A DNA stretch of 64,000 nt from Asterias amurensis (taxonomy: Eukaryota > Echinodermata > Asteroidea > Forcipulatida > Asteriidae), in the NCBI RefSeq assembly GCF_032118995.1, contig NC_092669.1:9981501-10045500 (forward strand), in the 5' to 3' direction. A program made the position numbers and the translations under genes. Under the pieces are notes generated by a model. It saw only the letters and a list, made by a program, of their open reading frames with translations. It did not search any database and was not told the origin of the DNA. Below are positions 23,519 through 48,207 of the stretch, piece by piece; the first letter of the stretch is position 1, and every line of letters begins with the position of its first letter.

Positions 23519-23552
23519 GGACGAAAACGGTGAATGTGCACTAGACACAAAT

Positions 23553-28764: not shown

Positions 28765-29006
28765 GGTCTATAGCATAAAACTGAGTTTCAAACTGTACTG
28801 GCATAAGCTGTATGATGTTTAGAATCGGTCTGTTCTTCTCGAAAGTGGTGTTGAATGTGAAGAAATGTTCACTAATATTCAGCCAAGATTCGGTGTAACT
28901 CCTCGAGAGAAAAAAAAGGTTGTTGAATGTGCAGATTTTTTTTTCTAATATTTCCAGCCAAAATTGGGTCTTTACTCCTCGCAAAAGCCGCGAGTGTGAC
29001 GAAATG

Positions 29007-29016
29007 TTTTATAAAA
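29007..29016 (-). promoter_or_regulatory. Candidate TATA box of lectin copy A
   Basis: TTTTATAAAA, 243 bp upstream of the lectin start codon, kept at the same distance in copy B (38433). It is palindromic, so it gives no direction by itself. Confidence 0.4.
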
Positions 29017-29358
29017 CTCAGTGCGAGTTTTTACCGACAGTGACACATTAATTTCCGTTGTGCGTTGGGTGAAATTACGGCAAACAATAAGGTACAAATT
29101 GATGTGTTTTAAAGCCTAGTTCCATCAACTCAAAATCCTCATTTATAGCGAATGTCCAACGCGAGGTGGCGATTTCAACCACTTGTAGCTGGTTTTACAC
29201 TTTTGTCCTTGCAGTCACCAAGATAATTTCAAGCAATAGTCTAGCTGGGACAGTGACGTATAGAAGACTATCAGTTGTACAGTGACGTTGGCCTAAAACA
29301 ACAGGCGGTTATTGCATCGACGCAAACACGACGGGCGCGCACAGTCTGTTTTTACGGA

Positions 29359-29443
29359 TATAAAAAACTCTCTCGGGTTTTTTGTTTACCTTTCAACAAT
29401 GGCATCAAGTTCAATTGTCCGTGAGAGGCTCCCTGGCGTGCTG
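29359..29443 (+). promoter_or_regulatory. Possible divergent promoter with short first exon (copy A only)
   Basis: TATAAAAAAC at 29359, then ACAATGG with ATG at 29399, fifteen codons (MASSSIVRERLPGVL) and a GTGAGT donor at 29444. Copy B has ATCAAAAAC in place of the TATA box and ATGAGT in place of the donor, so both signals are absent there. If there is no splicing the frame runs on to 29530. I do not recognise the peptide, and no downstream exon was found. Confidence 0.35.
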
Positions 29444-29530
29444 GTGAGTTCTGAAGGAAATCCACGTCTTGGCGCAGAAATTAACAATATTGTGAAACGC
29501 AGTGTAAAAGTCAAGACTAATTTGTCATGA

Positions 29531-30869
29531 AGTAAACCATGGAGGAAACTGAGAAGCCAATTTGAAACAGGCGCTCAACTACATCGAGTGATAACTGTAG
29601 AGTGAGGCAGGCCATACACCCACTCTAGTATTTTAGATGGACTCGTGTCGTACTACGGTACGCTGAGCTGATGGATGACAATTGAAGAGAGCCAGACACT
29701 GCTCTCCTTTTGAAAAGCCGACGTGATGCAGAACACGTTACCTATATGGCCTACAATAAACTAGCCTAAACATCTGACGTCACACTTTGAGGCTCGTGAA
29801 TAACGCTTGATGTCATTTTCAATATAGATTAAAATGTTGAAGTATATTATGAGAAGCCAAACATTTAAAATCAAAAATTTGTTGTTTTTTAGGGTCAAAA
29901 ATTGTTTCTTAGGTCTTATCAAAATAAACAAAAAAATTAATGTTCGGAACGGCCCCTTACAAACATTAATATTGTTGTTACGGTATCATAATAATAATAA
30001 TAGCTCCAAAGACAATAATACTGTTCTCAGAATGGTATGGTCCACTGAGCATTATTGCAAAGTTACTTTAGTCCTGCGCTTGATGTCATTATTCAATACT
30101 ACAGGTTCATAAATTAATCATGTATTGATACAGCCAACTATGAGTCGCTTTTCAATTGACCTAGTTTACCTGATCAGCAATAATATATCTTGGGGTACGC
30201 CATTTTGTGAGCCAGTATCCCTGTGTGGTGTCATTATAGTACGTTTATGGCTTATTATTGCCCTTTTCGAAACCACGGCTTCGGCTTTGGGTTCGGCTTC
30301 AGGATCCGTCCTCTCGTCAGAAGAAGCCCTGAGCGCATACGCAAAGCACGCGCAATATTGTCGAAACACTGCCGCGGGGCGAAGCTAGCCGGCCTGAGCC
30401 GAGTCGATTCCAAAGCCGAATCTGTAGTTTCGAAAAGGACCTATGATTGAAGACACTCAGACGGTTAGACTGGTCCCTGCAAGTCCTTTATTCGCAAAGA
30501 TAAGGAAATGTGTTAGTAGTGTTACGAAGTCGCAAATCGAAATTAACAACCTTAACAGAAATTAAAGGGAAAGACCGCACTTGAATAAATGTGAATGGGA
30601 GTCAAGGTTTAGAACAACAAAATATAAGACATTAAATTTTAATGAAATAAATACTCAGCGCTTCAAAATATATGAGCATAAAGGGAAGTTGAATTAATTA
30701 CATACAATGAGAAATTTAATACAATGAAAATAATTGAATTCAATGAAGAGATTTAAATACATGAAAATAGCGGGGCGGTGGTAACGGAACGGGTGAAATT
30801 ATAAATAGGGGAGAAGTTTTACCTCCGTCGAAACTCTAACTAAGTTAGGGTTCGTCGCTGCCATGGTCC
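29531..30869. other. Copy A spacer with a palindromic element
   Basis: 30261-30439 is an inverted-repeat element (CCTTTTCGAAACCACGGCTT to TCTGTAGTTTCGAAAAGG) found also at 39699-39878 and, split by a MITE, at 46408-46830. The remainder shows no exon. Confidence 0.7.
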
Positions 30870-31654
30870 CACCGCTGTTCAGAGCTCTACATCGAGTGCC
30901 AAATAGTTTTGCGCATGCGCGAGATTTTCATTAGTTATTCACAGCAGTGACCCCATCGCTGTTTTGTGCATGTTTCTATGACTTTAACGATGAGTTTTGT
31001 TGGCGTTTGTGAGTAAAATTGAATTTCCCTGATATTAAAACAATGTTTGTTGTAGAGGAAAATTATTATTCTATCAAATTATTCCGTTTATATAGCAGCA
31101 AACCCTCTGGATTAATTAAAATCAGTGGGATTCCACCAACGTTTTTCTGACGCGGCCCACATGTTTCACATACAAACTAAACAAACGCATACAATGCACA
31201 ATGTTTATTACAGTTTGCACACGTCACAAAAAGCGACAATTGCCCAATGCTTGTGTACATTACTCTTGATAAAAATGCTTCACCAGAACGTCGTCATGTG
31301 TTACAAAAGTAAACAGGGAATTGTTTTCAAAGGGTTTGCTATCTCAATTTTGAGTGGAAAACCATAGTTGTTATATATTTCTTACGTGTGAGGTCTATTT
31401 CTCAACTAGAAAATTCACATTACGTAGATTTTGAAGTATCAATTCGACTCAAAATCCGACCATCGCAACTAACTTCATTGCATATTCATGTTTAGTTTTC
31501 CATCTTGGCTTTTAATTGGTCAAAAATCGCGATGACCCCAGATCGTTTTCAACGGTTGAAAGGCTATGTTTTGTTTACGATTTTGACTCAAGAGAGCGCT
31601 CGTCAACAACTTCGCACATGCGCAAAACTAACTGTCAGCGAGTAAGCAGCGGTG
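30870..31654. mobile_element. 785-bp inverted-repeat transposon present only in copy A
   Basis: Ends CACCGCTG and CAGCGGTG are inverted; the similarity extends to AGTTTTGCGCATGCGCGA and its partner near 31615. GTCC flanks both sides (30866-30869 and 31655-31658), while copy B has a single GTCC at 40304-40307. The target duplication length is ambiguous between 2 and 5 bp. No transposase is visible. Confidence 0.92.
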
Positions 31655-31658
31655 GTCC

Positions 31659-31960
31659 AGTCGTGGGCCGGGCGGATCCGCGAGGTGTTCTACTGGGGTT
31701 TGTACATCTCAGCTGTGTACCGACAAGGACTCGGTACGGTCAACAGGAGAAAGGTAGAAGTTACCGGGCTACGGCCTCACGGCTGCTAGCCCGGGCATCG
31801 AAGCTCAAGGACCCAGCTCAGTCAGCCAAATGTGGAGACCTGTTCCTTGACTTGGGGTGGATTAGGGATTTGAAAACAGCTCTTGTATTATTAATGGATT
31901 TTGTTTTTTTAAATCAGCGGAATTAATCAACTCATTTTTTTTATTATGATAAAGCTGGTT
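31659..31960 (+). other. GC-rich conserved segment upstream of GOT1 exon 1 copy
   Basis: A segment of about 270 bp (starting AGTCGTGGGC, with GGCTACGGCCTCACGGCTGC) is nearly identical in copy B (40308-40580). The frame across it does not look like a known protein. It may be a 5' UTR exon or promoter of GOT1; this is inference. Confidence 0.4.
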
Positions 31961-32118
31961 CTTCCACCCACGCCTCTCTTTAATTAAATAATTGTTGTTT
32001 AGTTTTTGGACTAAAAAAATATAATAAATTAAAAAGACTGAAAAGTAAAGAAGTGAACGAGGTTATAGTTTTAGACACGTCAATTTTGCAGACGACAGTG
32101 GTTGAAAGAGTTCGCAAA

Positions 32119-32143
32119 ATGTTTGAAGTTACTGATTTTCAGA
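32119..32143 (+). CDS. GOT1B: GOT1 coding exon 1, duplicate in copy A (orphan or alternative first exon)
   Basis: ATG plus seven codons and one base, followed by GTGAGT, identical to the exon at 41744-41768. Exons 2-5 are not found downstream within copy A, where block X begins at 32150. It is on the same strand and upstream of GOT1 exons 2-5, so splicing from 32143 to 42884 would give the same protein. Confidence 0.75.
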
Positions 32144-32149
32144 GTGAGT

Positions 32150-32405
32150 ATTATCTGCTTAATCATCTCTAAGAAATTAGGCCCAGTTATACAAATAAAT
32201 AAAAAATGCTTTAATTGATAAACGGGTTAATTTGTATTTATTTTATTTTGGGGGGGGGGGGTCAAACACTTGTCTATCCTGAGCCAAATCGAAATATACA
32301 AAATGTGATTTATATGCAATTATTATTTTCTTGACCAGTAAATCAGACCGTTACTACCTTCCTTGAGAATTTGGTGCCAGTTTTTAGACTGACACCAATC
32401 ATTTA
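32150..32405. repeat. Block X', paralogous to 26352-26940
   Basis: See block X. It directly follows the right border of copy A and includes a run of 11 G at 32249. Confidence 0.85.
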
Positions 32406-32464
32406 AGAGTCAGTTCAGGTAAATAGTTGACATAGTTGCTCACGGTCAAAAAATGATTTTTTTT

Positions 32465-34020
32465 TATACTTTGTGGGTGGAAGGGCCTTGGGGTGCAAGT
32501 AAAAAAAATTGCATTTTCAATTCTATATATAGCCCGTTGCCATGGTTACGGCTCGTTTTAATTTTTTGCCATTTTAGGTCGATTTTGGGGTGCTGGAAAA
32601 CTGGTTTTTAGCTCATATTTACAACTCCACCCCACCAAAATGCAATATTAATTAAAAAAACCTTTTATATAACTACAAAGTATCATCCTTGGCCTTCCTT
32701 GAGAAAAAAAATTATTGCTTTAAATATCACCCTTGTGCTATTTTTGCATCATGCATTACAGTATGTTTTTAGAACTTGCAAAATCAACATTTTTACCCTA
32801 TTTTTGGACCCCAAAATGTTAACTTGCCAGGGGTCTCAGAAAATTTTCCTTTCGTCTGTGATTAGGGACAACATTGGTCTTTCCATATCTGGTGTCAAAA
32901 ACTTGGGCAATTGTATCCTGTTGGGCCAGTACTGCCTCAAAACTAGACTTTTTTCCCAAAAACATGAAAAATGCCTTTTTAAGGGTCTTTTCACATAATA
33001 TCGACATACGTGTCCATGGTAAAAGAAAAGGAATATTTTTCCTATACTTTGTGGATGGTAGGGACTTGGGGTGCAAATAAACAACATTAACATTTCAAAT
33101 CATAATATAACACGTTGCCATGGTAACAGTTCATTTGTGTTTAGGCCACTTTGGGCCGATATTGGGGGAATGAAAAACTGTTTTTTTAAGTTAATATTTA
33201 CAACTCCTCCCCACCAAAAAACAAAATTATTTCATAAAACCTTTTACATCACTACAATGTATCATCCTTGGCTTTACTTGAGACTAAACAATATTGCTAT
33301 AAATTTCCCCCTTGTGCTATTTTAAGAACGTGCATTACAGTATGTTTTTAGAACTTGCAAAATCAACATTTTTACCATATTTTTTGCCCTCAAAATTCCA
33401 TTTTTTCAGGGGTCTCAGAATATTTTCCTTTCGGTTTTGATCAGGGCCATAATTTGTCTTTTTATTTCTGGTAAGAAAAACTCGGGCAATTGTATCCTGA
33501 TGTAACAGAACTGTCTCAAAAATAGACCCTTTTCCCCGAAAACTAGAGAAATGCATTTTGAAATATTTGCTTCATTTTGAATTTATAACATGAAGAAGTT
33601 AGCTATAATTCCATCAATCTGGCAGCTTTTTATAAGCACTTTGTAAGTTTAGTGCATTACCAAACATTGATCAGGACTTGTTGATGACCTAAATCTTATA
33701 ATTTGCCCCTACCCGGCCCTGGCCCAATCATATTTCTTGACATTGCATAAAATAAAATAACAGTTTTGTGAACAGCACCTCTTTTTTGAAAGTCACATTT
33801 TTTAATTCCCCTTGCACATCAAGAAAGTTTGTACTGTCTTTAATGTTTTATTGGTTCTCGGAATATTTCCCTTTTTGTTTTGATGGGCTATCATTATGGT
33901 TTGCATGTCTACTGGGGAGAAACACTTTGGTTTATTGTATCCTGTTGTGACACTTCTGCCTCAAAAATGGTAATTTTTCCAAAAACAATAAAAATGCATT
34001 TTGAAGTTATCCCTTAGTTT
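32465..34020. repeat. Degenerate tandem repeat, unit about 580 bp
   Basis: ATACTTTGTGGGTGG, CGTTGCCATGGT, GAACTTGCAAAATCAACATT, GGGGTCTCAGAA and GGGCAATTGTATCCTG recur in order at about 32470, 33040 and, in part, 33830. The copies have diverged widely. Confidence 0.85.
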
Positions 34021-36266
34021 GAATTGATAAAAAAACAAAAACGAGCATGCTTGTTAAAAGAATATGGCACTGTTTCCATGATCTTTAAACCACTGAGTTT
34101 TTGTTTTGTCATAACTACTTTACCTAGTTGTACACATTGCAAGAAGAGAAGTAGTGCGATGAGCAAGCTTTACTGTTCTTGTCTTTACATGGCCTTAGAA
34201 CAGTCTTCTTGGTCCCCTGCCCGCTACCAAACTAAACATTTTCATCCCAATCAGAACAAAGAGGCTCTAAAAGTGAGCAAGTACTGTATCCAAAGTATCT
34301 AACCATTTAGCCGCTGTACCGCCCAGCCGCATTATAGCGATACACTGTATGCGGTACGAGGAAACCTCGCTAGCTTGTGTTTGTAGAAAAAAAGGAACAT
34401 CAAAAGAAAACTCGATAGTCATTAGTAGGTCTACGCATTTGTTAATATATCTAGTTGTTAAAGATCGTTATTAATTCTCCCTTCACAGTTGACTTGTCGA
34501 AGCTAATGATGATGAAATAATTTAGCTCTTACAAAAAATAAAACGCTCATTAGTAAACAGGAGACTGTTCATCATTTATTATATTGTCAAAAATTAACAC
34601 CTTCGCATTTAATCAGTATGAGCATTGAGCCAGAAAAAAAGCCTTGAAAAGCTATCGTGTTCATTTTATCCGTGCACAAAAATATTCGCCATAAAAATTA
34701 CCGTAGCCGTTTAACGAGAGGCATTTAATGTTCCCATGAGAACTTTTATACAAATATTACCGAAAGGGTAAAAAATTGTGCATACACATTAAGCCATGGC
34801 TATCTTTTAAAATTTGAACTATGATTCCAGTAATTTACTGCAAGACTCTTGAGAAATTGGATTTCAGCAAACTCGGGGGGTGCAGGGACTAAAGGGCTAA
34901 ATGGCCATTCACCTGCTTTGGCCTTCTGTAAGCAGTTCCCCCATCTATGGTGGGGTTCCTTTCAATTGTACTGTTGCAAACAATAAAAGAGTTGGTTTAT
35001 TTAACGTGATAAACAATTCAATGTTTTTTGTTGATCGTTCTCAGAGACATATATTATAATTATGAATTAGTAAGATAGTGAATGGAAAAAATATCAAACT
35101 AGCCTGAATAGACTTTTGTCACTGCAAATGCATCTTACTTATTTATGTTCAGCAGGTGCAAGTTTTTACAACTTCTTTCAATGTTGTTTCATTAAAGGAA
35201 CACGTTGCCTTGGATCGGTCGAGTTGGTATTTGAAAAGCGTTTGTAAACGTTTATAAAAAATTCATATGATTAGAAAGATATTTTAAAAGTAGAATATAA
35301 TGATCCACACAAGTATCACTCAAAAACATCTTTCTAACCATGCATTTTAAAACAAACCGTTACAAACGCATTTCAAAGACCAACTTAACCGATCCCAGGC
35401 AACGTGTTTCTTTTAAATAATCTCTTACGCTCATCTTGCAAATCGTTAGTATCATTGTTTTTAATAAGATCTTGGCAAACTTTTCCAACACTTTTAAGCG
35501 GGCTTTTTAATTTCCCACGTTTGTGTTGGACATGATTGGATGCTCCAAACCATCTGCCGCAAGCACAGAAACTACATTGTTTATGATCTCTATCTCTAAG
35601 AAAAGTTTTACATTTGGTAGCAGGCAGGGACCAAGGAGAGTAGGCCCTGTATTAAAGACAACTTGTAAAGAATGCTCATCGCACTCTACTTGCAATGGGA
35701 ATCATACCTGTACAATAGGTAAAGTAGCCAAATCAAGAACTCTCAGTGGCAAAGCATTGGTTATGGTTTGGTTGGATACCATTATGTTTAAATAAAAACT
35801 TTGTATTCATTACTCAAAGGGCATGGAAACAGTACCAGATTTTTAACAAGCATGCATTGTTTTTGGAAAAATTACTATACTTAAGGCATGATCAGTCACA
35901 ACAGGATACAATAAACACAGTGTTTCTACCCAGAAGACATGAAAACACCAATAACAACCGAAAGGGAACACTTTCACAAAAAGAGGCGCTATTCACAAAA
36001 CATTGTTTTATGCAATGTCAAGAAATATGATTGGGGCTGGGCCGGGCAAATTGTAAAATTAAGGTCATCAACAGTTCCTGATCAATGTTGGGTAATCCAC
36101 TAAGTGCTAAGGAAAAGCTGCAAGATTGATAGAATTATTACTTTTTAATGTTAGAAATTCAATATGAAGAAAAAACAATTCAAAATGCATTTTTCTGTTT
36201 GAGGAAAAAAGTCTATTTTTGAGACAGTACTGTTAACATCAGGATACACTTGCCAAGTTTTTCTTA
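33467..36266. repeat. Large inverted repeat with 1.3-kb spacer
   Basis: Left arm 33467-34290 (GGTAAGAAAAACTC, CTGTCTCAAAAATAGAC, GTGCGATGAGCAAGC) pairs with right arm 35620-36266 (GTCTATTTTTGAGACAG, GAATGCTCATCGCAC, CAAGTTTTTCTTACC). The right arm ends exactly where copy B begins. Confidence 0.85.
35194..35417. mobile_element. MITE (AAAGGAACACGTTGCCT family)
   Basis: AAAGGAACACGTTGCCTTGG at left pairs with CCAGGCAACGTGTTTCTTTT at right; inner arms ATTTGAAAAGCGTTTGTAA and TTACAAACGCATTTCAAA pair too. It lies in the spacer of the large inverted repeat. Confidence 0.9.
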
Positions 36267-36597
36267 CCCTGTTCTGTGATGGTTTTATTGTGCTTTTATG
36301 CACAAAAAGTATAGTTAAAAACTACTTGTGCAAATGCAGCTTTATATGTAATATTGAGCCAGGGATTTTGGTACATGTAACATTTAATACCATTGTATGA
36401 GCTGGGAGAGTTTATCTAGCCTTTGTGTCAATATCTTTGTTAAAGGGGCCAGTTCAAAGAGGTTACACTCTTTAGGTTACTCTCTTCAATGTTCTTTGCT
36501 CAATCCAAATTATTTATAGTAGGCATACCAATGTGAAGTTGGAAAATGAAAATGGTCAGTTTTCCTGTCTGCGAGCCAAAACGGTTTTCCGTGATGT

Positions 36598-37301
36598 CCA
36601 AGTTGCCCCACTTTAGAAGTGAAATTCACGTGAAATCCAGTTTTCCTGTTCGTGTGCCAAAAACGGCTGGTCGTGAGACATGGGTGCCCCACTTTAGATC
36701 TGAAGTTGACAATTTAAAATGCTCAGTTTTCCTGTTTATGGTCCAAAAGGGTTGGTCGTAAATACATACTTACATACATACATATTATTAGACATTTGTA
36801 TAGCGCCACTACGCGAAGAACGCAGCGCATTAGATATGGTACAGAGAATATTTGATCTTCTTAAATATTCGAAGAGAGTCAGATTTCCCAATTGAGGTGG
36901 ACAGTGCATTCCAGGTGTGTGGAGCAAACTGAGAGCATCAGAATGGGACCCAAGTTGCCCCACTTTAGAAGTGAAGTTCACGTGAAGTCCAGTTTTCCTG
37001 TTCGTGTGCCAAAAACGGCTGGTCGTGAGACATGGGTGTCCCACTTTAGATCTGAAGTTGACAATTTAAAATGCTCAGTTTTCCTGTTTATGGTCCAAAA
37101 GGGTTGGTCGTAAATACATACTTACATACATACATATTATTAGACATTTGTATAGCGCCACTACGCGAAGAACGCAGCGCATTAGATATGGTACAGAGAA
37201 TATTTGATCTTCTTAAATATTCGAAGAGAGTCAGATTTCCCAATTGAGGTGGACAGTGCATTCCAGGTGTGTGGAGCAAACTGAGAGCATCAGAATGGGA
37301 C
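36598..37301. repeat. 352-bp tandem duplication inside copy B
   Basis: GTATAGCGCCACTACGCGAA occurs at about 36799 and 37151, and CCAAGTTGCCCCACTTTAGA flanks both units. Copy A has one unit (from about 27531). Confidence 0.93.
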
Positions 37302-37618
37302 CCAAGTTGCCCCACTTTAGAAGTGAAGTTTACATTAAATGATTAGTTTTCCTGTATGTGAGCCAAAACGCTTCAGTCAATCATTCGATCAAAAGAATTT
37401 ATAAAGTGCCAAAATCGAAAGTTTGCTCTAGGCGCTGCTGATGTATTTGTGGCACATCAGAAGAAACATTATAGATGGTACACCTCATGAAACATGTGAG
37501 CTTTCAGGAGTGTCTTGAATGTATGCAGTGATATGGAATCTATGATGTATTCGAAAGTTTGTTCCAGATTCTGAGGCCCTATACACAAAAAAGTGATCTA
37601 TCGGCAAAAGAGACATAA

Positions 37619-37624
37619 TTTATT
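37619..37624 (-). terminator. Polyadenylation signal of lectin copy B
   Basis: AATAAA on the minus strand, 36 bp after the lectin stop. Copy A lacks 4 bp here (CCAATT in place of CCAATAAATT), so the hexamer is absent. Confidence 0.55.
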
Positions 37625-37660
37625 GGTTCTGGAGTGAGCGTTTTAGTCGTGGGGTCCCAC

Positions 37661-38191
37661 TTAGAAGTGAAGTTGACCGGCGGGCCGTTTGCATGCAAAG
37701 ACCCTTGACCCATCGCACGCTGTATCACTCCACTTGCCGTATGTACTGTCTTGCCTTACATGCAGAATGACGCAATTCTCACCTTCTGTACCTGTAGGGT
37801 CATCTGTTTTCCAAGTAGGCGTGAAGTAATACGCTTTCTGGTCATCCCCGTAGCATTTGCAGCTGGTAGTGGCGTTTGAACTTGTGACGCAGTTAACCCA
37901 CGATGCTGTGATCGTAGTTTCTGTACCGGTCTTCAGAAGGTCTGCCAAGAACTCGTTCTCTGCATGGGAGCGAGGAGCCGCCATAACGGCACCTTTCTTT
38001 GCACAAACTTTATGTGCATCTTCAAAATTAGCTTTTCCGGTATTAACCATGTAGCACGCTCGTTCCCATTGCTTCCATCCACTTGAGCAACTGCCGATCA
38101 CCATAGCCGGGCAGTCGCCCCAGACCATAGGGCACCACTGCGATAGAGCAATCACAGTGACAAGGGCAGCAAGGCATATTGTTAGCTTCAT
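37661..38191 (-). CDS. Secreted C-type lectin, copy B (176 aa)
   Basis: Paralogue of the lectin at 28240-28764, intronless with the same signal peptide. Residues 1-52 are identical to copy A. From residue 53 on I count about 16 substitutions and two one-residue insertions, many of them charge changes (E53K, A80E, G129D, and GKWGDAVCGG to GKWSDTACDG). All cysteines are kept. The sugar-selectivity triplet position again reads DPT and the WND motif is WSD, so calcium/sugar binding is uncertain here too. The NAT sequon is retained. A minus-strand AATAAA lies 36 bp beyond the stop. The start is chosen by the signal peptide and by agreement of both copies. Confidence 0.93.
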   Translation of the reverse strand: MKLTICLAALVTVIALSQWCPMVWGDCPAMVIGSCSSGWKQWERACYMVNTGKANFEDAHKVCAKKGAVMAAPRSHAENEFLADLLKTGTETTITASWVNCVTSSNATTSCKCYGDDQKAYYFTPTWKTDDPTGTEGENCVILHVRQDSTYGKWSDTACDGSRVFACKRPAGQLHF

Positions 38192-38432
38192 GGTCTATAG
38201 CATAAAACTGAGTTTCAAACTGTACTGGCATAAGCTGTATGATGTTTAGAATCGGTCTGTTCTTCTCGAAAGTGGTGTTGAATGTGAAGAAATGTTCACT
38301 AATATTCAGCCAAGATTCGGTGTAACTCCTCGAGAGAAAAAAATGTTGTTGAATGTGCAGATTTTTTTTTCTAATATTTCCAGCCAAAATTGGGTCTTTA
38401 CTCCTCGCAAAAGCCGCGAGTGTGACGAAATG

Positions 38433-38442
38433 TTTTATAAAA
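38433..38442 (-). promoter_or_regulatory. Candidate TATA box of lectin copy B
   Basis: TTTTATAAAA, 242 bp upstream of the start codon, matching the position in copy A. Confidence 0.4.
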
Positions 38443-38824
38443 CTCAGTGCGAGTTTTTACCGACAGTGACACATTAATTTCCGTTGTGCGTTGGGTGAAA
38501 TTACGGCAAACAATAAGGTACAAATTGATGTGTTTTAAAGCCTAGTTCCATCAACTCAAAATCCTCATTTATAGCGAATGTCGAACGCGAGGTGGCGATC
38601 TCAACCACTTGTAGCTGGTTTTACACTTTTGTCCTTGCAGTTACCAAGATAATTTAAAGCAATAGTCTAGCTGGGACAGTGAAGTATAGAAGACTATCAG
38701 TTGTACAGTGACGTTGGCCTAAAACAACAGGCGGTTATTGCATCGACGCAAACACGACGGGCGCGCACAGTCTGTTTTTACGGATATCAAAAACTCTCTC
38801 GGGTTTTTTGTTTACCTTTCAACA

Positions 38825-38956
38825 ATGGCATCAAGTTCAATTGTCCTTGAGAGGCTCCCTGGCGTGCTGATGAGTTCTGAAGGAAATCCACTTCTTGGCG
38901 CAGAAATTAACAATATTGTGAAACGCAGTGTAAAAGTCAAGACTAATTTGTCATGA
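38825..38956 (+). pseudogene. Copy B counterpart of the short divergent exon
   Basis: The frame from ATG at 38825 stays open to 38956, but the upstream TATA sequence (ATCAAAAAC) and the GTGAGT donor (here ATGAGT) differ from copy A. Which state is ancestral is unknown. Confidence 0.3.
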
Positions 38957-40641
38957 AGTGAACCATGGAGGAAACTGAGAAGCCAATTTGAAACAGGCGC
39001 TCAACTACATCGAGTGATAACTGTAGAGTGAGGCAGGCCATACACCCACTCTAGTATTTTAGATGGACTCGTGTCGTACTACGGTACGCTGAGCTGATGG
39101 ATGACAATTGAAGAGAGCCAGACACTGCTCTCCTTTTGAAAAGCCGACGTGATGCAGAACACGTTACCTATATGGCCTACAATAAACTAGCCTAAACATC
39201 TGACGTCACACTTTGAGGCTCGTGAATAACGCTTGATGTCATTTTCAATATAGTGTAAAATATTGAAGTATATTATGAGAAGCCAAACATTTAAAATAAA
39301 AAATTTGTTGTTTTTTAGGGTCAAAAATTGTTTCTTAGGTCTTATCAAAATAAACAAAAAAATTAATGTTCGGAACGGCCCCTTACAAACATTAATATTG
39401 TTGTTACGGTATCATAATAATAATAATAGCTCCAAAGACAATAATACTGTTCTCAGAATGGTATGGTCCACTGAGCATTATTGCGAAGTCACTTTAGCCC
39501 TATTAGCGCTTGATGTCATTATTCAATACTACAGGTTCATAAATTAATCATGTATTGATACAGCCAACTAAATGTCCATGAGTCGCTTTTCAATTGACCC
39601 AGTTTACCTGATCAGCAATAATATATCTTGGGGTACGCCATTTTGTGAGCCAGTATCCCTGTGTGGTGTCATTATAGTACGTTTATGGCTTATTATTGCC
39701 CTTTTCGAAACCACGGCTTCGGCTTTGGGTTCGGCTTCAGGATCCGTCCTCTCGTCAGAAGAAGCCCTGAGCGCGTACGCAAAGCAAGCGCAATATTGTC
39801 GAAACACTGCCGCGGGGCGAAGCTAGCCGGCCTGAGCCGAGTCGATTCCAAAGCCGAATCTGTAGTTTCGAAAAGGACCTATGATTGAAGACACTCAGAC
39901 GGTTAGACTGGTCCCTGCAAGTCCTTTATTCGCAAAGATAAGGAAATGTGTTGGTAGTGTTACGAAGTCGCAAATCGAAATTAACAACCTTAACAGAAAT
40001 GAAAGGGAAAGACCGCACTTGAATAAATGTGAATGGGAGTCAAGGTTTAGAACAACAAAATATAAGACATTAAATTTTAATGAAATAAATACTCAGCGCT
40101 TCAAAATATATGAGCATAAAGGGAAGTTGAATTAATTACATACAATGAGAAATTTAATACAATGAAAATAATTGAATTCAATGAAGAGATTTAAATACAT
40201 GAAAATAGCGGGGCGGTGGTAATGGAACGGGTGAAATTATAAATAGGGGAGAAGTTTTACCTCCGTCGAAACTCTAACTAAGTTAGGGTTCGTCGCTGCC
40301 ATGGTCCAGTCGTGGGCGGATCCGCGAGGTGTTCTACTGGGGTTTTTACATCTCAGCTGTGTACTGACAAGGACTCGGTACGGTCAACAGGAGAAAGGTA
40401 GAAGTTACCGGGCTACGGCCTCACGGCTGCTAGCCCGGGCATCGAAGCTCAAGGACCCAGCTCAGTCAGCCAAATGTGGAGACATGTTCCTTGACTTGGG
40501 GTGGATTAGGGATTTCAAAACAGCTCTTGTATTATTAATGGATTTTGTTTTTTTAAATCAGCGGAATTAATCAACTCATTTTTTTTTATTATGATAAAGC
40601 TGGTTCTTCCACCCACGCCTCTCTTTAATTAAATAATTGTT

Positions 40642-41614
40642 AATAAATTAAATAATGGTTATTTAATTATATTATTTTTGTTAAATAAATTTTGATAAAA
40701 ATGCTGAAGCCTTGTGGTTTTTCTTTCTTAATTTACTCTATCTGGCATGTAGATACACACCATCACGGCATACCGCAAACCAATGACATCTCACCATGCC
40801 ATCCACACCTCAAAATCATATCCACATTATGTAGGCCTACTCAGATCATCAGATGTAGGCCTGTATGTTGTGGATTATACCTCCCCAGTGCATTCTTCAA
40901 AAGAAACATGATTTGACACTATGGTGCTAAAAACGAAGTTTGGGAGGCTATTTCACGTATCTGATCAGTGCCCTTTCTCGTCAGGTCTGGAATTTCATCT
41001 TGTTGTGGACTCAAGTATGTGGGGGGGGGGGGGGCGGGGGGCAAAGCCTTTATTTATTTTTTTACATAAATTTTTGCAAAAAGGGCACACTGTTTCTGTA
41101 GCCACCGTGTAAATACACGCCAGGTTTATGTTCTACCTGGTCCAGATTTTATAAAGCCTATGTAAGCACAAAAACTTGCTAAGCACAGAGAAAAGTAGTA
41201 TAAAAGAAAATTATGCCACTATTAAACCGCTTCCCGGCGAATATTTATTGTTGTGATGTGTGACTGGTGGTGCCTACTTTTTGCTTAGCAAAGAAAGTAT
41301 TTTGCCAAGAAGTATTTTCTGCTATAAAACAGCTTTATGAAATTGGGCCATGTATGCACTGATTTGGATCAGCAGCCGTCACACATGACGGGATAAAGTT
41401 GGTTTTCATGCTCCTCAATTTGGCCCACCTTCGCCTATAAATCCGAGCACCATCAAAGCAAGACTAGTCACGACAAACGCTTGAGGGCGCATGATACATT
41501 AAGACGTTAGCCAAAAATTGTATTTCTTTGGTTCGCTTAGTACACCTATTTATATTTACTTAATAAAAAAAAATATTTCATGAAGATATTATCTAATCGA
41601 ATAAGTTTTTTATT
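40642..41614. mobile_element. 973-bp insertion present only in copy B, 130 bp before GOT1 exon 1
   Basis: AATAATTGTT stands on both sides (40632-40641 and 41615-41624), whereas copy A reads AAATAATTGTTGTTTAG once. The insert holds a G run at 41021-41032 and the relic of a GGGCCCAATTTCAT-type MITE near 41157-41348. No coding sequence recognised. Confidence 0.85.
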
Positions 41615-41743
41615 AATAATTGTTTAGTTTTTGGACTAAAAAAATATAATAAATTAAAAAGACTGAAAAGTAAAGAAGTGAACGAGGTTATAGTTTTAGA
41701 CACGTCAATTTTGCAGACGACAGTGGTTGAAAGAGTTCGCAAA

Positions 41744-41768
41744 ATGTTTGAAGTTACTGATTTTCAGA
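41744..41768 (+). CDS. GOT1B: GOT1 exon 1
   Basis: Eight codons plus one base, donor GTGAGT at 41769. The split AAG codon restores Lys-9, which is conserved in the family. Confidence 0.9.
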
Positions 41769-44700
41769 GTGAGTATTTTATATTTTTTTAAGTAACAGTC
41801 TAAGACTAAAGGTGTATCGACAAATTTGTGCGTTTTTGTAGTGAATAAGTGTGTTCAATATCGGTCAAAAAATAACAATGCAACTGGCCAAAATCAGAAC
41901 ACGATCGACTTGTCATTGTAAATTTGCATTGAACATGTTGAAATGATTGATTGAGCCATTTTGTACATTTTGTCTTAAGCTGAGTGAGTGGTCCAAACAA
42001 TCATAGTTCATCATGTCCATGGTTCAACAAACATGATAAATAGTGCCAAATACGCAGAACTCCCTCCGCTTGTTGGCCCTACGGTAAATTATTGTTTTAA
42101 ATAAAAAACATGTTTTTTAGCCCCACTTGAATTGAATTGAACACTTGTGACTTTTGATTGTGTGGCCAAGGCTAGCTGGGAAAAGTTTCTATATTGCGCC
42201 ACCACTTTTTCATACGATATGAAATAAAACAGGGAAAAGTTTTCGTATGGCGCCACCACTTTTTCATTCGATATGAAATAATATAGTATCTAATTTACCT
42301 CAATGAGATATCCCTTTTTGTAAAAATAAGTGAAAAAGTGGTGGCGCCATACGGAAAGTTATTCTAAAACAGTATCTAGTTTACCTCAATAAGATATCCC
42401 TTTTTGTAAAAATTTGTGAAAAAGTGGTGGCGCCATACGGAAAGTTATCTGCTAGCTGAATCCTTAGTCATACGTCCACACCATTTCCTCATTCAGAAAT
42501 AACCAAAAATAAAAAAAATTCTGGTGCCTCCCCATGCGAGCCACTTGGCAGTATAAACCGGCTGAGCTGAATGTGTTAACCTAACTCTTTGCTTGCTTTT
42601 TTGTGTGTATTGAAAAGTGAAACAAATAAAATTTGAAAAAGAAATTTTTAACGATAAATTTGCTACCTTTCTCCGACTCTAATTTCCTCGATTCGTACAT
42701 GGCGCATCCATACTCGGGCCTGTGGGTGACAAGAAGTGGGGCCTATTTCCCTCGGCCTTCGGCTTCGGGAAAAAGGTCCCTATTCTGGTCACTCAAAGTC
42801 CCTCGGGGGAATAGATGATTACTAGTTACCTCATTGCCAGTCAATATGTGTATACTATTTGATATATTTTTCTCTAATTGCAGAGATTGGCATAGGACTG
42901 ACCGGCTTTGGAGCTTTCTTTTTATTCCTTGGAATCATATTTCTATTCGACAAAGGACTTCTTGCTATTGGAAATGTGAGTGACTACCTGTATCTTTTAC
43001 TATACAGTTAGGCCAGATGCTTCGCTTTTGAAAGGGAAACGACACGAAGTTGCTTTCTCTTTGGTTAAAGGGTCTTGGGGGTCCTACTACTTGCCGTCAA
43101 CTCGCCGTCAACTCCACGAATATATTTTTAAAATCCACAAAAGAGCATAGAATTGTAAAGTATCAGCTCAAAGAGAATTCGCGTAAGTTTTAGGTCATAT
43201 TTCGGAATAAAAATTTAGGTATTTTTGCGTGAAAAAATTATCTCGAAGCAGCAAAACCATCGGCAGTCATCTAGCTTTTTCACATTGATTAGTATTGGTC
43301 CAAGATGTCAATGATTGGTACTTTTTTTTTGTAACACAAAGTCGTTTTTGTGAATGAATTTTACCGAAAACCATGAGAAATATGTAGTTTAGCCCAGACT
43401 TAACACTTCTGTGCCCCATTTATTAAATTTAATGAGTTGACGGCACGAAAATGAGTTGACGGCGAGTTGACGGCAAGTCGGCGAGTTGAAGGCAAGTAGT
43501 AGGACTGGGTCTTGGTACATTTTGTAGGACACAAAACGTGTCACAATATCCACAGATTTACATTACACTTTCAGGGTTTGAAGATAATAAGCCTTTTTGA
43601 GATATGGCGAACACAATGCTAGTAAAGTTGTGGTAAATTTGTGCTTATTGACCATAGAAATAGATTGTATGTTATTCAGTGAAGTGCGCATTTTAGCCTT
43701 TTAGGCGACACAGCGTTTTCACGTAAACCTAATGACCACAAATGTGGTGAGCGTGGCATCAGTCGCGGCGTGTGATGCGCGCGTATCACGTCCGCCATAC
43801 CTCAAAAAGGCTTATGGTGGTAGAAAGCTTCTCTTAAAATATTATTAACTGAGTCGCTGTAGTTTTTGAGAAATGAGTGTAAATGAACAACGTCACGAAA
43901 ATACGTTTTACATTATTTGTATGACTTGTTTTCATCATTTCAAAAAACTACAGCACCTCAGTGAGTAATATTTTAAGAGAAGTTTTCTACTATCATTATC
44001 TTCAAACTGTGTAAGTTTAATGTAAATCTGTGGAATGTGTGTTTTGTATTACAAAAACTACCGCAATCCTATAAAGGGAAGGTACACGTTTGATAATTGT
44101 CAAAGACCAGTCTTCTCAATTGGTTGTATCCCATCATAAGCATAAAATAACAAGCCTGTGAAAATTTGAGCTCAATTGGTCGTCAAAGTTGCGAGATATG
44201 AATGAAATAAAAAACACCCTTGTCACACAAAGTTTTGTGCTTTCAGATGCTTGGTTTCGGGACCTCAAGTTCTAAATCTGAGGTCTCAAAATCAAATTCA
44301 TGGAAAAATACTTCTTTCTTGAAAACTACTCCACTTCAGAGGGAGCCGTTTCTCACAATGTTTTATACTACCAACCTCTCCCCATTACTCGGTTTTTATA
44401 CTACCAACCTCTCCCCATTACTCGGTTACCAAGTAAGGTTTTATGCTATTAATTATTTTGAGTAATAGTGTCCACTGCCTCTAAGTTTTTAACATCTCCT
44501 ATGACTAGTCTTACTCTTTGTAAGATTGACCCCAGTTTTAAGACCCAGTTTTAAGTTTTTATCCTCCGAAAGAAATCCTCCGCAATAATTGAATAATTCT
44601 TGATTCGTTTTCAGATTCTATTTCTTGCTGGTCTAGCCTGCGTCATTGGCCTTGAAAGAACCTTCCGCTTCTTCTTCCAGCAACATAAATGGAAAGCAAC

Positions 44701-47700
44701 GGGATTCTTCATTGGAGGGATGGTTATCGTTCTGATAGGATGGCCCCTTGTTGGCATGATCCTTGAAACATATGGATTTTTCTTATTATTTGGGTAAGAC
44801 AGAGTTGAGATTATCTTTGATTTCATGGTCGTCTACAACAATCTTTGCTTTAATTGCCAAATGGCGTGTCGTGGCCGAGCAGGTGATAGCACCGGACTCA
44901 AGCTCTGGTGTTTCTGTTCAGCAGAGTGTGGGTTTAAGAGTCGTGACACTTGTGTCCTTTAGTAAGAGGCTTAACCATTATTGCTGTGTCCTTCGGATGA
45001 GAAGTAAAGCCTTTGATCCCGTGTGTTGTGCAACGCAAGTAAAAGAACCAAGAGAAGGGGTTCGCCCCGTTGTTCCTGATTTGATTGGCAGCATATTGCG
45101 CCGCAGTAGAAACCATAACATGGTGGCAGTGTCATGGCCGAGCGGTTAAGAGCACCGGATTCAAGCACTGGTGTTTGATCAACAGGGTGTGGGTTCGGAT
45201 CCCGGTCGTGACACTTGCTACATAAAATTGGGGAGGTAGTGCTTTCTGCTCTACCGGCCAGGCTTCGAATTGATGCCAAGCCTACATTCGTATGGACTGT
45301 GAAAGGGGTAACCCTGTTGCAGCCCTAGGAGTAGGTGGCATGTTCGAAAAGGAGAAGATCTCATTATTCAAACAGAGTCCCTCATACCTTGCAGGAAAAT
45401 ACTGTGTGTTAAAGCGCCTTGAGCGTCACTGAGTATAAACGGATATGCGCGCTATAGACCCCTTGCAATACGCACAGCGTACTCACATGTGCCTATTCTG
45501 GGTGTCATTTTGGGTGTCAAAACCGTACACAAACGTGCACAAAAGAGAGTTCAGTTGACACCCAAAATTACGCGCATTGTTCGGAGACGCGTTCTGTATT
45601 ATGTAAGAAACCAACAGCCCCCCTTGCATAACGCGAAATGCTACAGGTACGCTGAGGTCACCCGCACATTTTTACAGACATAGAACAGCTATTGTCCAAT
45701 GATCTGCTTCCTGTATGAGAGTGTGACGTCATATGCAATGGGTCTTTATAAGATGCCACTATTATGACACTTTTAATAACCAATCTACATACATAGATGT
45801 ATGACTATCTTTAAAGGCAGTGGACACTATTGGTAATTACTCAAAATCATTATTATCATAAAACCTTACTTGGTAACAAGTAATGGGGAGAGGTTGATAG
45901 TATAAAACGTTGTGACAAAACGGCTCCCTCTGAAGTGACGTAGTTTTTGAGAATGAAGTTTTCCATGAATTCGATTTCGAGACCTCGGATTTAGAATCTG
46001 AGGTCTCAAAATCAAGCATCTGAAAGCACACAACTTCGTGTGACAAATGTGTTTCTTTCATTATTATCTCGCAACTTCGACAACCAATTGAGCTAAAATT
46101 TTAACAGGTTTGTTATTTTGTGCATATGTTGAGATACACCAAGTGGGAAGACTGGTCTTTGACAATTACCAATAGTGTCCAGTGTCTTTACCCCTAATCT
46201 TCACACTATCTTTAACCCTAATCTTCACAATTTTCTTGATTGTTTTTCTTGACAGTGGTTTCTTCCCAGTAGTCATAAACTTCCTTCGTAGAGTACCTGT
46301 ACTTAGCACCATTTTAAATCTACCTGGCATCAGTGGGGTAAGTGCACCAGATCAGTGAAGCCTACATTGGTCATCATGCATTTGAAGTAAATACTAACTC
46401 ATTGAGTACTATAGCCCTTTTTGAAACCACGGCTTTGGCTATGGATTTGGCTTCAGGCTCCGTCCTCTCATCTGAAGTTCTGGGCCCAATTTCATAGAGC
46501 TGCTAAGCACGAAAATTTGCTTAGCATGAAATTTCTTTCTTGATAACAACAGGATTACCAACCAAATTTCCATGCGATTTTCAGGATAAGCAAAAAACAG
46601 CTGATTACTAGTAACAAGCAATATGCAACAAATAGAAATTTATTTTGTTGGTAATCCTGTTTTTATTGAGAAAGAAATTTCCTGCTGAGCAAATTTTTGT
46701 GCTTAGCAGCTCTATGAAAATGGGCCCTGATGAGCGCGTACTCAAAGCATGCGCAATTGTCAAAAGAACCGCAGGGCCAAGCTAGCCCTGAGCTGAATCT
46801 GAAGCTGAAGCCGTAGATATGAAAAGGGCTTGGTTTGATATCAACGCTAGAGTATTGGTGTTAAACAACATTAGGGACTATTCATTTTGGTTTTTACCCA
46901 TACACCGATGTGTGTTTCACTGTATACTCAGTACTTTCCCGAGTCATGTAAACAAATATCACAGGCATATAATACTCAGGTGGAATTCGAACCCACAACC
47001 CTTGCAATTCTAGAGCAGTGTCTTACCAACTAGACTACCAAGAACGCCCGGTAACTAGAGGCAGTTCATCAAATTTAACATCTCTTATAACATAAGGGAG
47101 GTTTAACTGCACGCTCCGCATGAACGTGACCATCAGAAAATTGTTTCGTTAAAATCTCACATTTTTAGCATCTGTGGGGTTACCATTTTTCACGTCAGGT
47201 ACGTACATGCGCAGATGTCATACGTGAGCATGAGCCCTAAGTGGTGACATCACCCAGATATAACACAATTTTTTGACGTTAGCGTTCACGGTTTTGCTTG
47301 CGTCATATGCAGCTAAACCTCGCTTTCAAACACTTTTGTGAACGTTTTACGAGTTCATGGGAATGATTTTCCTTTTGTAAAGGAACAATTTTTAGAAGAT
47401 TGGTTTCTGTTTGTTTGACTATTTTACAAACTTGAGCAACTGGTTTTGTTTAGATTGTTGTGATAGACGCCATCTTTACGGGCAACTTGGGTTTTGGCTT
47501 TGAGCTGCAGCAAGCGTTCTAAGTTGTCTATGCCCCCAATCATGGGAGAAATTTGGTAGAAATGAAATGTGCCGCATAACAGTAAGTTTTGCGTAAAAAC
47601 AATGATTGAGTTGCCTTCGAAGATGGCCGACTTCACACTACTGTGTCACGTCAAATGGAAACTTTCTATTCTTGGAATAAAAAAATAGTTTGTTCAAAGG

Positions 47701-48207
47701 TAGTTGCTAAAAACTGTTTTCCAAATAACACATTTTTTATTTAGCAGAGAATTTTTTTTCTAAGACTAGACTTGTGAACAAGTCTTTAATGATCTGTCAC
47801 GATAGTCAAGTCTTGGTGGATCAAATACTGCTCTGGCTAGATTACTTCTCTCGCTCGAAGCTGACGACTACTACTGCGTAGTTGTGAGAGCGGTAGCTAG
47901 GGGGGCCGGAGGTCTCGTGAGAATATCGCCAGTGTCACAGGAATCGCGGAGAGAACCGGAATGCTATCACCGCGACAGACATTTAACGACTTGTCCACAA
48001 GTCTAGTCTAAGACTAGTAGATTGGCAATGTGTTTGTGTATCTGAGATACACTCTAGTTCCTCAGGGTTCTATGTTTGGACCCCATTCATCAGTCAACCC
48101 TTCTACATGTTTTTCTTTTATCATTATCACAGTTTTGTTTCTTTTCATTTGTTTTGTTTTCCCTGCAGTTTCTTAGTCGATTTGAAGAGAGGAATCCAAT
48201 GGTATAA
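41744..48207 (+). CDS. GOT1B: GOT1B-like vesicle transport protein, 5 exons, 138 aa, complete
   Basis: Exons 41744-41768, 42884-42975, 44615-44793, 46256-46337 and 48169-48207 join in phase (417 nt with stop) to 138 residues, the same length as human GOT1B. The start MFEVTDFQKIGIGLTGFG matches the family N-terminus. Four hydrophobic segments follow: FGAFFLFLGIIFLF, ILFLAGLACVIGL, FFIGGMVIVLIGWPLVGMI and GFFLLFGGFFPVVI. The conserved ERTFRFFFQQHKWKATGFF lies between segments two and three, and the end is FLSRFEERNPMV. Got1 proteins are small tetraspanning membrane proteins of the early Golgi/ER that support vesicle traffic (family knowledge). Its exon 1 and promoter region are duplicated at 32119, and a 973-bp insertion lies close upstream here. 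Candidate AATAAA signals downstream: 50434, 52653 and 52796; none is proven. Confidence 0.96.
42178..42450. mobile_element. MITE (GGCGCCACCACTTTTTCA family)
   Basis: GTATGGCGCCACCACTTTTT occurs near the left end and its complement twice at the right (about 42330 and 42418). The interior is directly repeated (GATATCCCTTTTTGTAAAAA). Confidence 0.9.
42745..42860. repeat. Interspersed repeat, partner of 17700-17840
   Basis: CACTCAAAGTCCCTCGGGGG and CTCATTGCCAGTCAATATGT are the reverse complement of the earlier copy. It ends about 25 bp before the 3' splice site of GOT1 exon 2. Confidence 0.8.
42884..42975 (+). CDS. GOT1B: GOT1 exon 2: first membrane segment
   Basis: Acceptor CTCTAATTGCAG and donor GTGAGT. 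It encodes IGIGLTGFGAFFLFLGIIF and FDKGLLAIGN. Ends in phase 0. Confidence 0.96.
43079..43506. mobile_element. 428-bp inverted-repeat insertion with 9-bp target repeat
   Basis: TCCTACTACTTGCCGTCAAC at left pairs with GAAGGCAAGTAGTAGGA at right. GGGTCTTGG stands on both sides (43070-43078 and 43507-43515). The host is a GATAATGATGGTAGAAAGCT-type MITE. Confidence 0.88.
43588..43815. mobile_element. TA-flanked MITE nested in the same host MITE
   Basis: TAAGCCTTTTTGAGATATGG at left and CCATACCTCAAAAAGGCTTA at right; reverse-oriented sister of the copy at 8491-8717. Confidence 0.9.
44083..44486. mobile_element. MITE, GGCAGTGGACACTATTGG family
   Basis: Left end altered (GGAAGGTACACGTTTGATAA), right end AATAGTGTCCACTGCCTCTA. 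A 30-bp direct duplication (ACTACCAACCTCTCCCCATT twice, about 44367 and 44400) marks internal slippage. Confidence 0.85.
44615..44793 (+). CDS. GOT1B: GOT1 exon 3: membrane segments 2-4
   Basis: Acceptor TTCGTTTTCAG and donor GTAAGA. It encodes the conserved GLERTFRFFFQQHKWKATGF and VLIGWPLVGMILETYGFFLL. 179 nt. Confidence 0.97.
44866..45110 (+). repeat. tRNA-Leu(CAA)-derived SINE
   Basis: GTGGCCGAGCAGGTGATAGC, GACTCAAGCTCTGG (CAA in the anticodon position) and GTGTGGGTTTAAGAG. The body (AAGAGGCTTAACCATTATTG) is shared with 38-290. Confidence 0.8.
45126..45460 (+). repeat. tRNA-Leu(CAA)-derived SINE, best-preserved head
   Basis: GTGTCATGGCCGAGCGGTTA at the 5' side and GTCGTGACAC at the 3' side can pair as an acceptor stem. 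GGATTCAAGCACTGG has CAA at the anticodon, and GGGTTCGGATCCC is the T arm. The body differs from the 44866 copy (TTAAAGCGCCTTGAG, shared with 11820). Confidence 0.82.
45453..45750. mobile_element. ATAGACC...GGTCTTTAT inverted-repeat element
   Basis: TATAGACCCCTTGCAATACG at left, ATATGCAATGGGTCTTTATA at right. Its ends resemble those of the ATAGACCTTATGC-type MITEs at 12881 and 56018. Confidence 0.7.
45813..46192. mobile_element. MITE, GGCAGTGGACACTATTGG family
   Basis: GGCAGTGGACACTATTGGTA at left, ACCAATAGTGTCCAGTGTCT at right. It ends about 65 bp before GOT1 exon 4. Confidence 0.92.
46256..46337 (+). CDS. GOT1B: GOT1 exon 4
   Basis: Acceptor TTTTTCTTGACAG and donor GTAAGT. It encodes GFFPVVINFLRRVPVLST and LNLPGISG. 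Ends in phase 0. Confidence 0.96.
46408..46830. mobile_element. CCACGGCTTTGG element split by a GGGCCCAATTTCAT-type MITE
   Basis: Outer element CCTTTTTGAAACCACGGCTT to GAAGCCGTAGATATGAAAAG, the same family as 30261-30439. It is interrupted at 46482-46727 by a full MITE with ends GGGCCCAATTTCATAGAGCT and AGCTCTATGAAAATGGGCCC. Confidence 0.9.
46883..47053 (-). repeat. tRNA-like SINE (TACCCATACACCG-tailed family)
   Basis: Minus strand: GTAGTCTAGTTGGTAAGAC and GGGTTCGAATTCCACC, then a tail complementary to TTTTTACCCATACACCGATG. Best-preserved full copy; related to the source of the 1576-3198 array. Confidence 0.82.
47054..47766. other. GOT1B: GOT1 intron 4, unique part
   Basis: No exon or clear repeat recognised, though the sequence is mixed in base composition and contains short open frames on both strands. 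Confidence 0.5.
47767..48014. mobile_element. Inverted-repeat element (GACTAGACTTGTG family)
   Basis: GACTAGACTTGTGAACAAGT at left, ACTTGTCCACAAGTCTAGTC at right. A fragment is at 4008-4090. Confidence 0.88.
48169..48207 (+). CDS. GOT1B: GOT1 last coding exon
   Basis: Acceptor TTTTCCCTGCAG, then FLSRFEERNPMV and TAA at 48205-48207. It matches the family's short polar C-terminus ending in MV. Confidence 0.93.
   Translation, partial: FLSRFEERNPMV

What the first reader, a model, noticed from the sequence alone, without database searches (positions are those of the whole stretch)
32119..42975. Two identical GOT1 first exons 9.6 kb apart: alternative promoter or orphan?
The 25-nt coding exon 1 with its donor and about 120 bp upstream occurs at 32119 and at 41744, both on the strand of exons 2-5. 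Splicing from either to 42884 would give the same 138-aa protein. The copy A promoter would thus place a lectin gene (copy B, opposite strand) inside a GOT1 intron. A duplication that doubles promoters without changing the protein is a neat route to new expression control.
Basis: partly seen in the sequence, partly recalled or inferred. Interest (0 to 1): 0.72.

Follow-up and report, generated by a model that had tools for sequence, protein, structure and literature searches.

The report
Duplicated GOT1 start beside starfish lectins
In a starfish genome a tandem duplication of a lectin gene also copied the promoter and tiny first exon of the neighbouring Golgi gene GOT1; the extra start looks intact and could still be spliced in, but it is most simply a passenger of the lectin duplication, and whether it is used is not known.

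Summary
The repeat is real: 31995-32152 equals 41620-41777 letter for letter (158 bp), and the search found the block only twice in the genome. It is the right-hand tip of a lectin-bearing tandem duplication (unit A about 26346-32152, unit B about 32153-41777). The junction, 9 bp past the exon 1 donor, fuses GOT1 intron 1 to the interior of a dispersed MITE-like element; both parents share TATTTT. GOT1 exons 2-4 were found once, so copy B is the resident exon 1 and copy A a severed one with intact proximal upstream DNA, ATG and donor. A haplotype artefact is unlikely: no gap, and the flanking arm is only 85-91% identical. Identity of the exon block is not evidence of selection: flanks differ by about 1%, so zero differences in 158 bp has chance 0.22. 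The lectin domain holds 25 of 55 mismatches, with raised dS, suggesting an older duplication homogenised around it. Copy A has apparently lost about 0.98 kb of upstream DNA. Best reading: passenger, splice-competent, possibly weakly used. A selected alternative promoter is possible but unsupported. PEP1 of Arabis alpina is a proven precedent.

The parts
26346..32152 (+). Tandem duplication unit A (left edge, approximate, inside a MITE-like element; right edge 9 bp into a copy of GOT1 intron 1)
   Evidence: Self-alignment and breakpoint comparison
32153..41777 (+). Tandem duplication unit B, contiguous with GOT1 intron 1; carries a 3.9-kb inverted-repeat-rich stretch 32407-36265 and an internal 349-bp extra stretch
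32119..32143 (+). GOT1 coding exon 1, copy A (severed copy), donor GTGAGTATT
   Evidence: identical to 41744-41768
41744..41768 (+). GOT1 coding exon 1, copy B (resident copy)
31995..32152 (+). 158-bp identical run in copy A (124 bp upstream, exon 1, 9 bp intron)
41620..41777 (+). 158-bp identical run in copy B
32147..32156 (+). Duplication junction: GOT1 intron 1 GTGAGTATT joined to MITE interior ATCTGCTTAATC; parents share TATTTT
   Evidence: the MITE end in L004, L005 and L006 runs through the breakpoint, but only 38 bp of it remain here
26285..26387 (-). MITE-like element end containing the left breakpoint
   Evidence: 103-bp stretch matches L004, L005, L006 at 76-85% over 98-104 bp
42884..42975 (+). 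GOT1 exon 2 (acceptor TTTCTCTAATTGCAG)
44615..44793 (+). GOT1 exon 3
46256..46337 (+). GOT1 exon 4
48169..48207 (+). GOT1 exon 5 with stop (FLSRFEERNPMV)
   Evidence: inferred from phase, acceptor and length
28240..28767 (-). C-type lectin ORF, copy A
37661..38194 (-). C-type lectin ORF, copy B (would be nested in the A-to-exon-2 intron)
28217..28651 (.). Divergent island over the lectin recognition region: 25 mismatches in 435 bp against 30 in 3235 elsewhere in the main block
30870..31654 (.). Copy-A-only insertion with ends CACCGCTG/CAGCGGTG and 4-bp target duplication GTCC (30866-30869, 31655-31658); empty site GTCC in B at 40304-40307
40642..41614 (.). Sequence present only in copy B, holding an old MITE relic at about 41134-41362; flanked by AATAATTGTT at 40632 and 41615, single at 31987 in A, hence probably deleted from A
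32075..32082 (-). TGACGTGT, an XBP1/ATF6-like site (name recalled), 36 bp before the ATG in copy A; the same at 41700-41707 in copy B
   Evidence: 4 in window, 1.46 expected, 6 of 100 shuffles reach 4

Best explanation
A microhomology-mediated tandem duplication in Asterias amurensis, running from inside a MITE-like element to 9 bp inside GOT1 intron 1, copied one whole C-type lectin gene and, as a passenger, the proximal promoter, 5' UTR and 25-nt first exon of GOT1. Copy B stays joined to the single set of GOT1 exons 2-5 and is the resident start. Copy A is a severed start whose proximal upstream DNA, ATG and donor are intact; if it fires, its next usable acceptor is expected to be exon 2, 10.7 kb away, giving the same protein. 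Inferred: later exchange between the units kept most of the duplicated DNA, exon 1 included, nearly identical, while the lectin binding region kept older differences; copy A lost about 0.98 kb of upstream DNA. Most GOT1 mRNA probably comes from copy B, with at most a minor same-protein contribution from copy A.
For: Shown: identical run of 158 bp, block found at two places; unit-wide homology, 98.5% over 3670 columns; paralogous left arms 26350-26937 and 32151-32406 starting at the junction; the junction truncates a MITE whose dispersed copies L004-L006 run through the breakpoint, and both parental sequences share TATTTT; no N in window; GOT1 exons found once in the genome (3 of 3 matches here); the lectin pair is the only close pair, next best by score 34% identity. 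Passenger reading: identity of the exon block is unremarkable (882 of 3513 windows of 158 columns in the main block have no mismatch; chance 0.22); apparent loss of about 0.98 kb upstream in A. Homogenisation: lectin dS 10 of 115.7 sites and left arm 149-155 of 176 plus 30 of 33 ungapped columns identical, against 0.93% difference elsewhere; no close third lectin found. Splice competence: donor intact; no strong polypyrimidine-AG (at least 12 of 14 pyrimidines) between junction and exon 2, although the true acceptor itself has only 11 of 14.
Against: The left arm is short and much gapped (68.6% when gaps count), its first 38 bp are MITE, and whether the rest is itself a dispersed repeat could not be checked genome-wide (the search of 32186-32410 did not complete); locally it matched only itself and its partner in the window and 29 fetched loci. 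Sequences between the left arms and the main block (26938-27198 in A, 32407-36265 in B) gave no alignment, so later rearrangement must be assumed. Gene conversion is inferred from two copies in one genome. The acceptor scan used a crude rule that exon 2's own acceptor would fail. No transcript data: use of copy A is neither shown nor excluded.
Confidence: 0.7

Rival explanations
1. Copy A is a working second promoter that contributes GOT1 mRNA with its own expression pattern; the lectin is then truly nested in a GOT1 intron.
For: ATG, donor, 124 bp upstream and an XBP1-like site are intact; in mouse liver the average expression of a gene group that includes Golt1b was lower without XBP1 (PMC6959563, one passage); PEP1 of Arabis alpina has the same layout with both starts used (PMC3527215, passages); in Drosophila yakuba 24 of 76 chimeras from tandem duplication showed raised expression (PMC5460883, outline and one section read).
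Against: No transcript evidence; identity is no greater than in neighbouring DNA; copy A apparently lost the 0.98 kb upstream that B keeps and carries a transposon-like insertion about 340 bp upstream of the identical run.
Confidence: 0.2
2. Assembly artefact: the two units are the two haplotypes placed end to end.
For: Flank divergence outside the lectin region, 0.93%, is close to the 0.96% k-mer heterozygosity reported for another individual of the species (PMC11090083, passages). The genome held here has 491,506,623 bases in 23 contigs against 491,537,102 in 22 in the paper, so I cannot be sure that all gap padding was kept.
Against: No N in the window; the paper's totals imply 34,000 bp of padding for 68 joins, about 500 bp each (my arithmetic from PMC10625585 Table 3), so this looks like one HiFi contig; purge_dups was applied; the left arm differs at 9-15% of ungapped columns, not about 1%; the junction truncates a MITE with microhomology.
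Confidence: 0.05
3. Recent unequal crossing-over between two haplotypes carrying long-separated lectin alleles: the duplication is young (about 1%) and the lectin island is captured allelic divergence, not resistance to conversion.
For: Flank divergence near heterozygosity; island confined to the lectin region; no close third paralogue found.
Against: The left arm at the junction is 85-91% identical in ungapped columns, not about 99%, unless it is an independent older repeat.
Confidence: 0.2
4. The lectin island is an import by conversion from a third lectin gene.
For: A compact 435-bp island with both synonymous and replacement changes.
Against: Apart from the pair, no listed lectin exceeds 38% identity (150 of 454 candidates scored); a lost, unscored or unassembled donor remains possible.
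Confidence: 0.07

Closest known systems
PEP1 of Arabis alpina (PMC3527215; passages seen)
   Same: Partial tandem duplication doubling parts of the promoter and exon 1 (copies 6.3 kb apart), both spliced to one exon 2, predicted identical proteins in accession Paj.
   Different: PEP1 use is proven by 5' RACE and cDNA, and its upstream sequences are highly diverged; no other gene inside the intron is mentioned in the passages I saw. Here use is unproven, the proximal upstream DNA is identical and the duplicated block carries a lectin gene.
Chimeric and partial-gene tandem duplications of Drosophila yakuba (PMC5460883; outline and one section seen)
   Same: Duplication breakpoints inside genes shuffle promoters and exons.
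   Different: Those are expression-tested population variants; here one gene's start is re-joined upstream of the same gene, so the protein would not change.
Duplications at TIR transposon ends in animals (PMC8277862; abstract and section list seen)
   Same: A breakpoint lies in a TIR/MITE-type element end.
   Different: Those are sequences captured inside elements (Pack-TIRs); here the element is cut at the edge of an ordinary tandem duplication.

Membership tests
Tandemly duplicated first-exon/promoter locus (PEP1-like) | Direct duplication including promoter-proximal DNA and exon 1 | tested here: met
Tandemly duplicated first-exon/promoter locus (PEP1-like) | Both exon 1 copies keep ATG, frame and donor; only one downstream exon set | tested here: met
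Tandemly duplicated first-exon/promoter locus (PEP1-like) | Both starts transcribed and spliced to the same exon 2 | not testable with these tools
   no RNA data held; spliced reads would also be identical
Haplotypic false duplication | Join at a contig gap | tested here: not met
   no N in 64 kb; caveat: the held genome's total differs from the paper's by about 30 kb
Haplotypic false duplication | Copies differ throughout at about allelic level | tested here: not met
   0.93% in most of the main block, 5.7% in the lectin island, 9-15% of ungapped columns in the left arm
Haplotypic false duplication | Half read depth over each copy | not testable with these tools
   no reads
Got1/Sft2-like (Pfam PF04178) | Profile match above gathering score | tested here: met
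   exons 1-3: 52 bits, cut-off 24.6
C-type lectin domain (Pfam PF00059) | Profile match above gathering score | tested here: met
   copy B: 44.2 bits, cut-off 22.6; copy A was not scanned
Gene-conversion pair | Patchwork of high and low divergence between paralogues, not explained by selection on protein | tested here: met
   synonymous changes are raised in the island too; clustering reached in 0 of 2000 permutations
Gene-conversion pair | Tract exchange seen across individuals or species | not testable with these tools
   one assembly; no relatives held

The most novel reading that the evidence does not exclude
GOT1 runs from two identical, mutually homogenised promoters 9.6 kb apart, with an immune-type lectin nested antisense in the intron between them; gene conversion keeps both starts in step while the lectin binding region escapes it, so one small duplication couples lectin diversification to a second secretory-pathway promoter.
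Probability: 0.12. Interest if true: 0.5.

Novelty: new member of a known kind. Interest (0 to 1): 0.25.

Why it matters
It is a cleanly readable case of how a tandem duplication carrying one gene can hand its neighbour a spare promoter without changing its protein. It warns that sequence identity of a spare promoter in a homogenised duplication is not evidence of function, and that ordinary RNA-seq cannot see which start is used. The lectin island could be a useful small case of conversion stopping at a binding domain.

Tried and rejected
Rejected: selection as the reason for the identity of the exon block (25-26% of windows of that size in the main block are identical). Rejected: positive selection on the lectin pair as a claim: dN 0.039 is below dS 0.086, one-sided Fisher p 0.99; an early impression from the amino-acid differences did not survive the count. 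Rejected: independent transposon insertion at 32152 as the reason for the homology break; intron 1 sequence does not resume after 32153, unit B begins instead. Judged unlikely: B-only 40642-41613 as a young insertion; no inverted repeats at its ends and only an old relic in its middle matches elsewhere (40 of 1103 candidates scored).

Corrected on checking: my first alignments of the left arm (82% and 76%) took in non-homologous edges; the homologous pieces alone give 85-91% in ungapped columns. The identical run is 158 bp, not 153, because the first query began at 32000. Neither correction changes the odds.

Led nowhere: paper search for GOT1B with echinoderm found 3 unrelated proteomics papers (listing); GOT1B with XBP1 found none; a search on duplicated exon 1 wording found none; lectin, conversion and sea star gave no direct case in the 12 of 20 papers listed.
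Full report
WHERE IT IS. The window is contig 22, 9981501-10045500, of a 491.5-Mb genome. Contig 9 is 23,750,475 bp long, exactly the scaffold N50 of the Asterias amurensis assembly GCA_032118995.1, and contig 22 (13.43 Mb) fits its smallest chromosome (PMC10625585, first two of four parts read, plus passages). That assembly is HiFi plus Hi-C, purged of haplotypic duplication, QV 48.51. The held genome has 491,506,623 bases in 23 contigs, the paper 491,537,102 in 22, a small difference I cannot explain. The window has no N.

OBSERVATION. A 201-bp query from 32000 found 6 matches genome-wide: the block twice, and 4 short matches to the MITE-like sequence from 32149 on. GOT1 exons 2-4 were found only here (3 of 3 matches). 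The gene model gives 138 aa from either exon 1, and exons 1-3 match Pfam Got1.

WHAT IT IS PART OF. Self-comparison shows that the repeat is the tip of a lectin-bearing duplication: 27199-30869 with 36266-40307, 31653-31996 with 40302-40641, and 31989-32152 with 41614-41777. Further left, 26350-26537 pairs with 32151-32364 (149-155 of 176 ungapped columns identical, by MAFFT and BLAST, with many gaps) and 26905-26937 with 32374-32406 (30 of 33). So unit A ends and unit B begins at 32152/32153. The left arm begins in a MITE-like element. Its 103-bp end matches L004, L005 and L006 over 98-104 bp, running through the breakpoint, while at the junction only 38 bp remain. Left parent AATATTTTTCTGC and right parent GAGTATTTTATAT share TATTTT; the junction reads GAGTATTATCTGC. 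This is the signature of a simple tandem duplication, with one side inside the MITE and the other 9 bp inside GOT1 intron 1. Copy B is contiguous with intron 1, so copy A is the severed start.

AGE AND HOMOGENISATION. Of 55 mismatches in the 3670 aligned columns of the main block, 25 lie in 435 bp over the lectin recognition region (5.7%) and 30 in the other 3235 (0.93%); Fisher p 4e-10, and 0 of 2000 permutations cluster as strongly (the island's edges were chosen from the data, which the permutation of the best 435-bp window allows for). The lectin ORFs differ at 10 synonymous and 16 replacement changes (dS 0.086, dN 0.039). Synonymous sites are raised too, so this is old divergence, not protein selection alone, and dN does not exceed dS. 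Apart from the pair, no listed lectin exceeds 38% identity and the next best by score is 34% (150 of 454 candidates scored). With a left arm that differs at 9-15% of ungapped columns, close to the lectin dS, the simplest reading is an older duplication in which most of the block, exon 1 included, was later homogenised; this is inferred. The rival, recent unequal crossing-over between haplotypes carrying divergent lectin alleles, fits the 0.93% (k-mer heterozygosity 0.96% in another individual, PMC11090083, passages) but not the left arm.

IS COPY A CONSERVED FOR FUNCTION? At the flank rate, zero differences in 158 bp has probability 0.22, and 882 of 3513 windows of that size in the main block are identical. 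So identity says nothing. The copies differ upstream: A carries a 0.79-kb insertion (30870-31654) with CACCGCTG/CAGCGGTG ends and a GTCC target duplication, B having the empty site. B has about 0.98 kb (40642-41614) that A lacks. That stretch is flanked by AATAATTGTT, found once in A. In the genome search 51 matches came back, all but its own place within query bases 493-721, an old MITE relic; only 40 of 1103 candidates were scored, so uniqueness of the rest is likely, not proven. It is therefore probably ancestral upstream DNA lost from A, which bears on promoter strength.

COULD IT STILL WORK? ATG, donor, and a TGACGTGT site 36 bp before the ATG are intact; the site resembles an XBP1/ATF6 site (recalled), and in mouse liver a gene group including Golt1b had lower average expression without XBP1 (PMC6959563, one passage). 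A crude scan saw no strong acceptor before exon 2, but exon 2's own acceptor would not pass that rule. PEP1 in Arabis alpina proves that such a layout can be used (PMC3527215, passages). I put about 0.4 on any copy-A GOT1 transcript, and 0.12-0.2 on a distinct regulatory role; these are judgements.

CHECK OF THE PROPOSED TEST. Reads joining 32143 to 42884 cannot be told from reads joining 41768 to 42884, because exon 1 and 124 nt upstream are identical; the nearest difference is 125 nt before the ATG. Nascent RNA, unspliced reads past 32152, unique chromatin marks or editing are needed.

VERDICT. Real feature, most simply a passenger of a lectin duplication; a known kind of layout, here unproven in use. 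In the listings of the paper searches made here I saw no report of this locus; the assembly's own annotation was not available to me.

Noticed in passing
window 28217-28651 and partner about 37640-38080: Lectin recognition region of the two tandem genes is a pocket of 5.7% divergence in a block otherwise 0.93% divergent; the ORFs also differ by two codon-length indels.
   Followed up: partly
window 32407-36265: Unit-B-only 3.9-kb stretch with long imperfect inverted arms (for example 33649-33719 with 36033-36103) and a nested smaller inverted-repeat element at 35194-35413.
   Followed up: partly
window 36598-37368: Internal tandem duplication in unit B (shift 352, 96.7% identical) that unit A lacks.
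   Followed up: no
window 1586-3203, 8717-10645, 19784-20325: Tandem repeat arrays with shifts of about 96, 154 and 54 bp in the self-comparison; the last is read as long dipeptide ORFs.
   Followed up: no
window 7002-7382, 14343-14715, 22089-22476, 23552-23935, 45807-46190, 62634-62994: A roughly 380-bp dispersed repeat family, about 83-90% identical between these copies, in both orientations.
   Followed up: no
window 42178-42449 (GOT1 intron 1): Short direct and inverted repeats inside intron 1, including direct pairs of 50 and 84 bp at 90-93%.
   Followed up: no
window about 45130-45220: Sequence reads like a tRNA-derived repeat (GTCATGGCCGAGCGGTTAAGAGCACCGG...); the assembly paper reports 14,926 tRNA calls. 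By eye only.
   Followed up: no
window 32075-32082 and 41700-41707, minus strand: TGACGTGT in both GOT1 upstream blocks; 4 in the window against 1.46 expected (6 of 100 shuffles reach 4), so only suggestive.
   Followed up: partly
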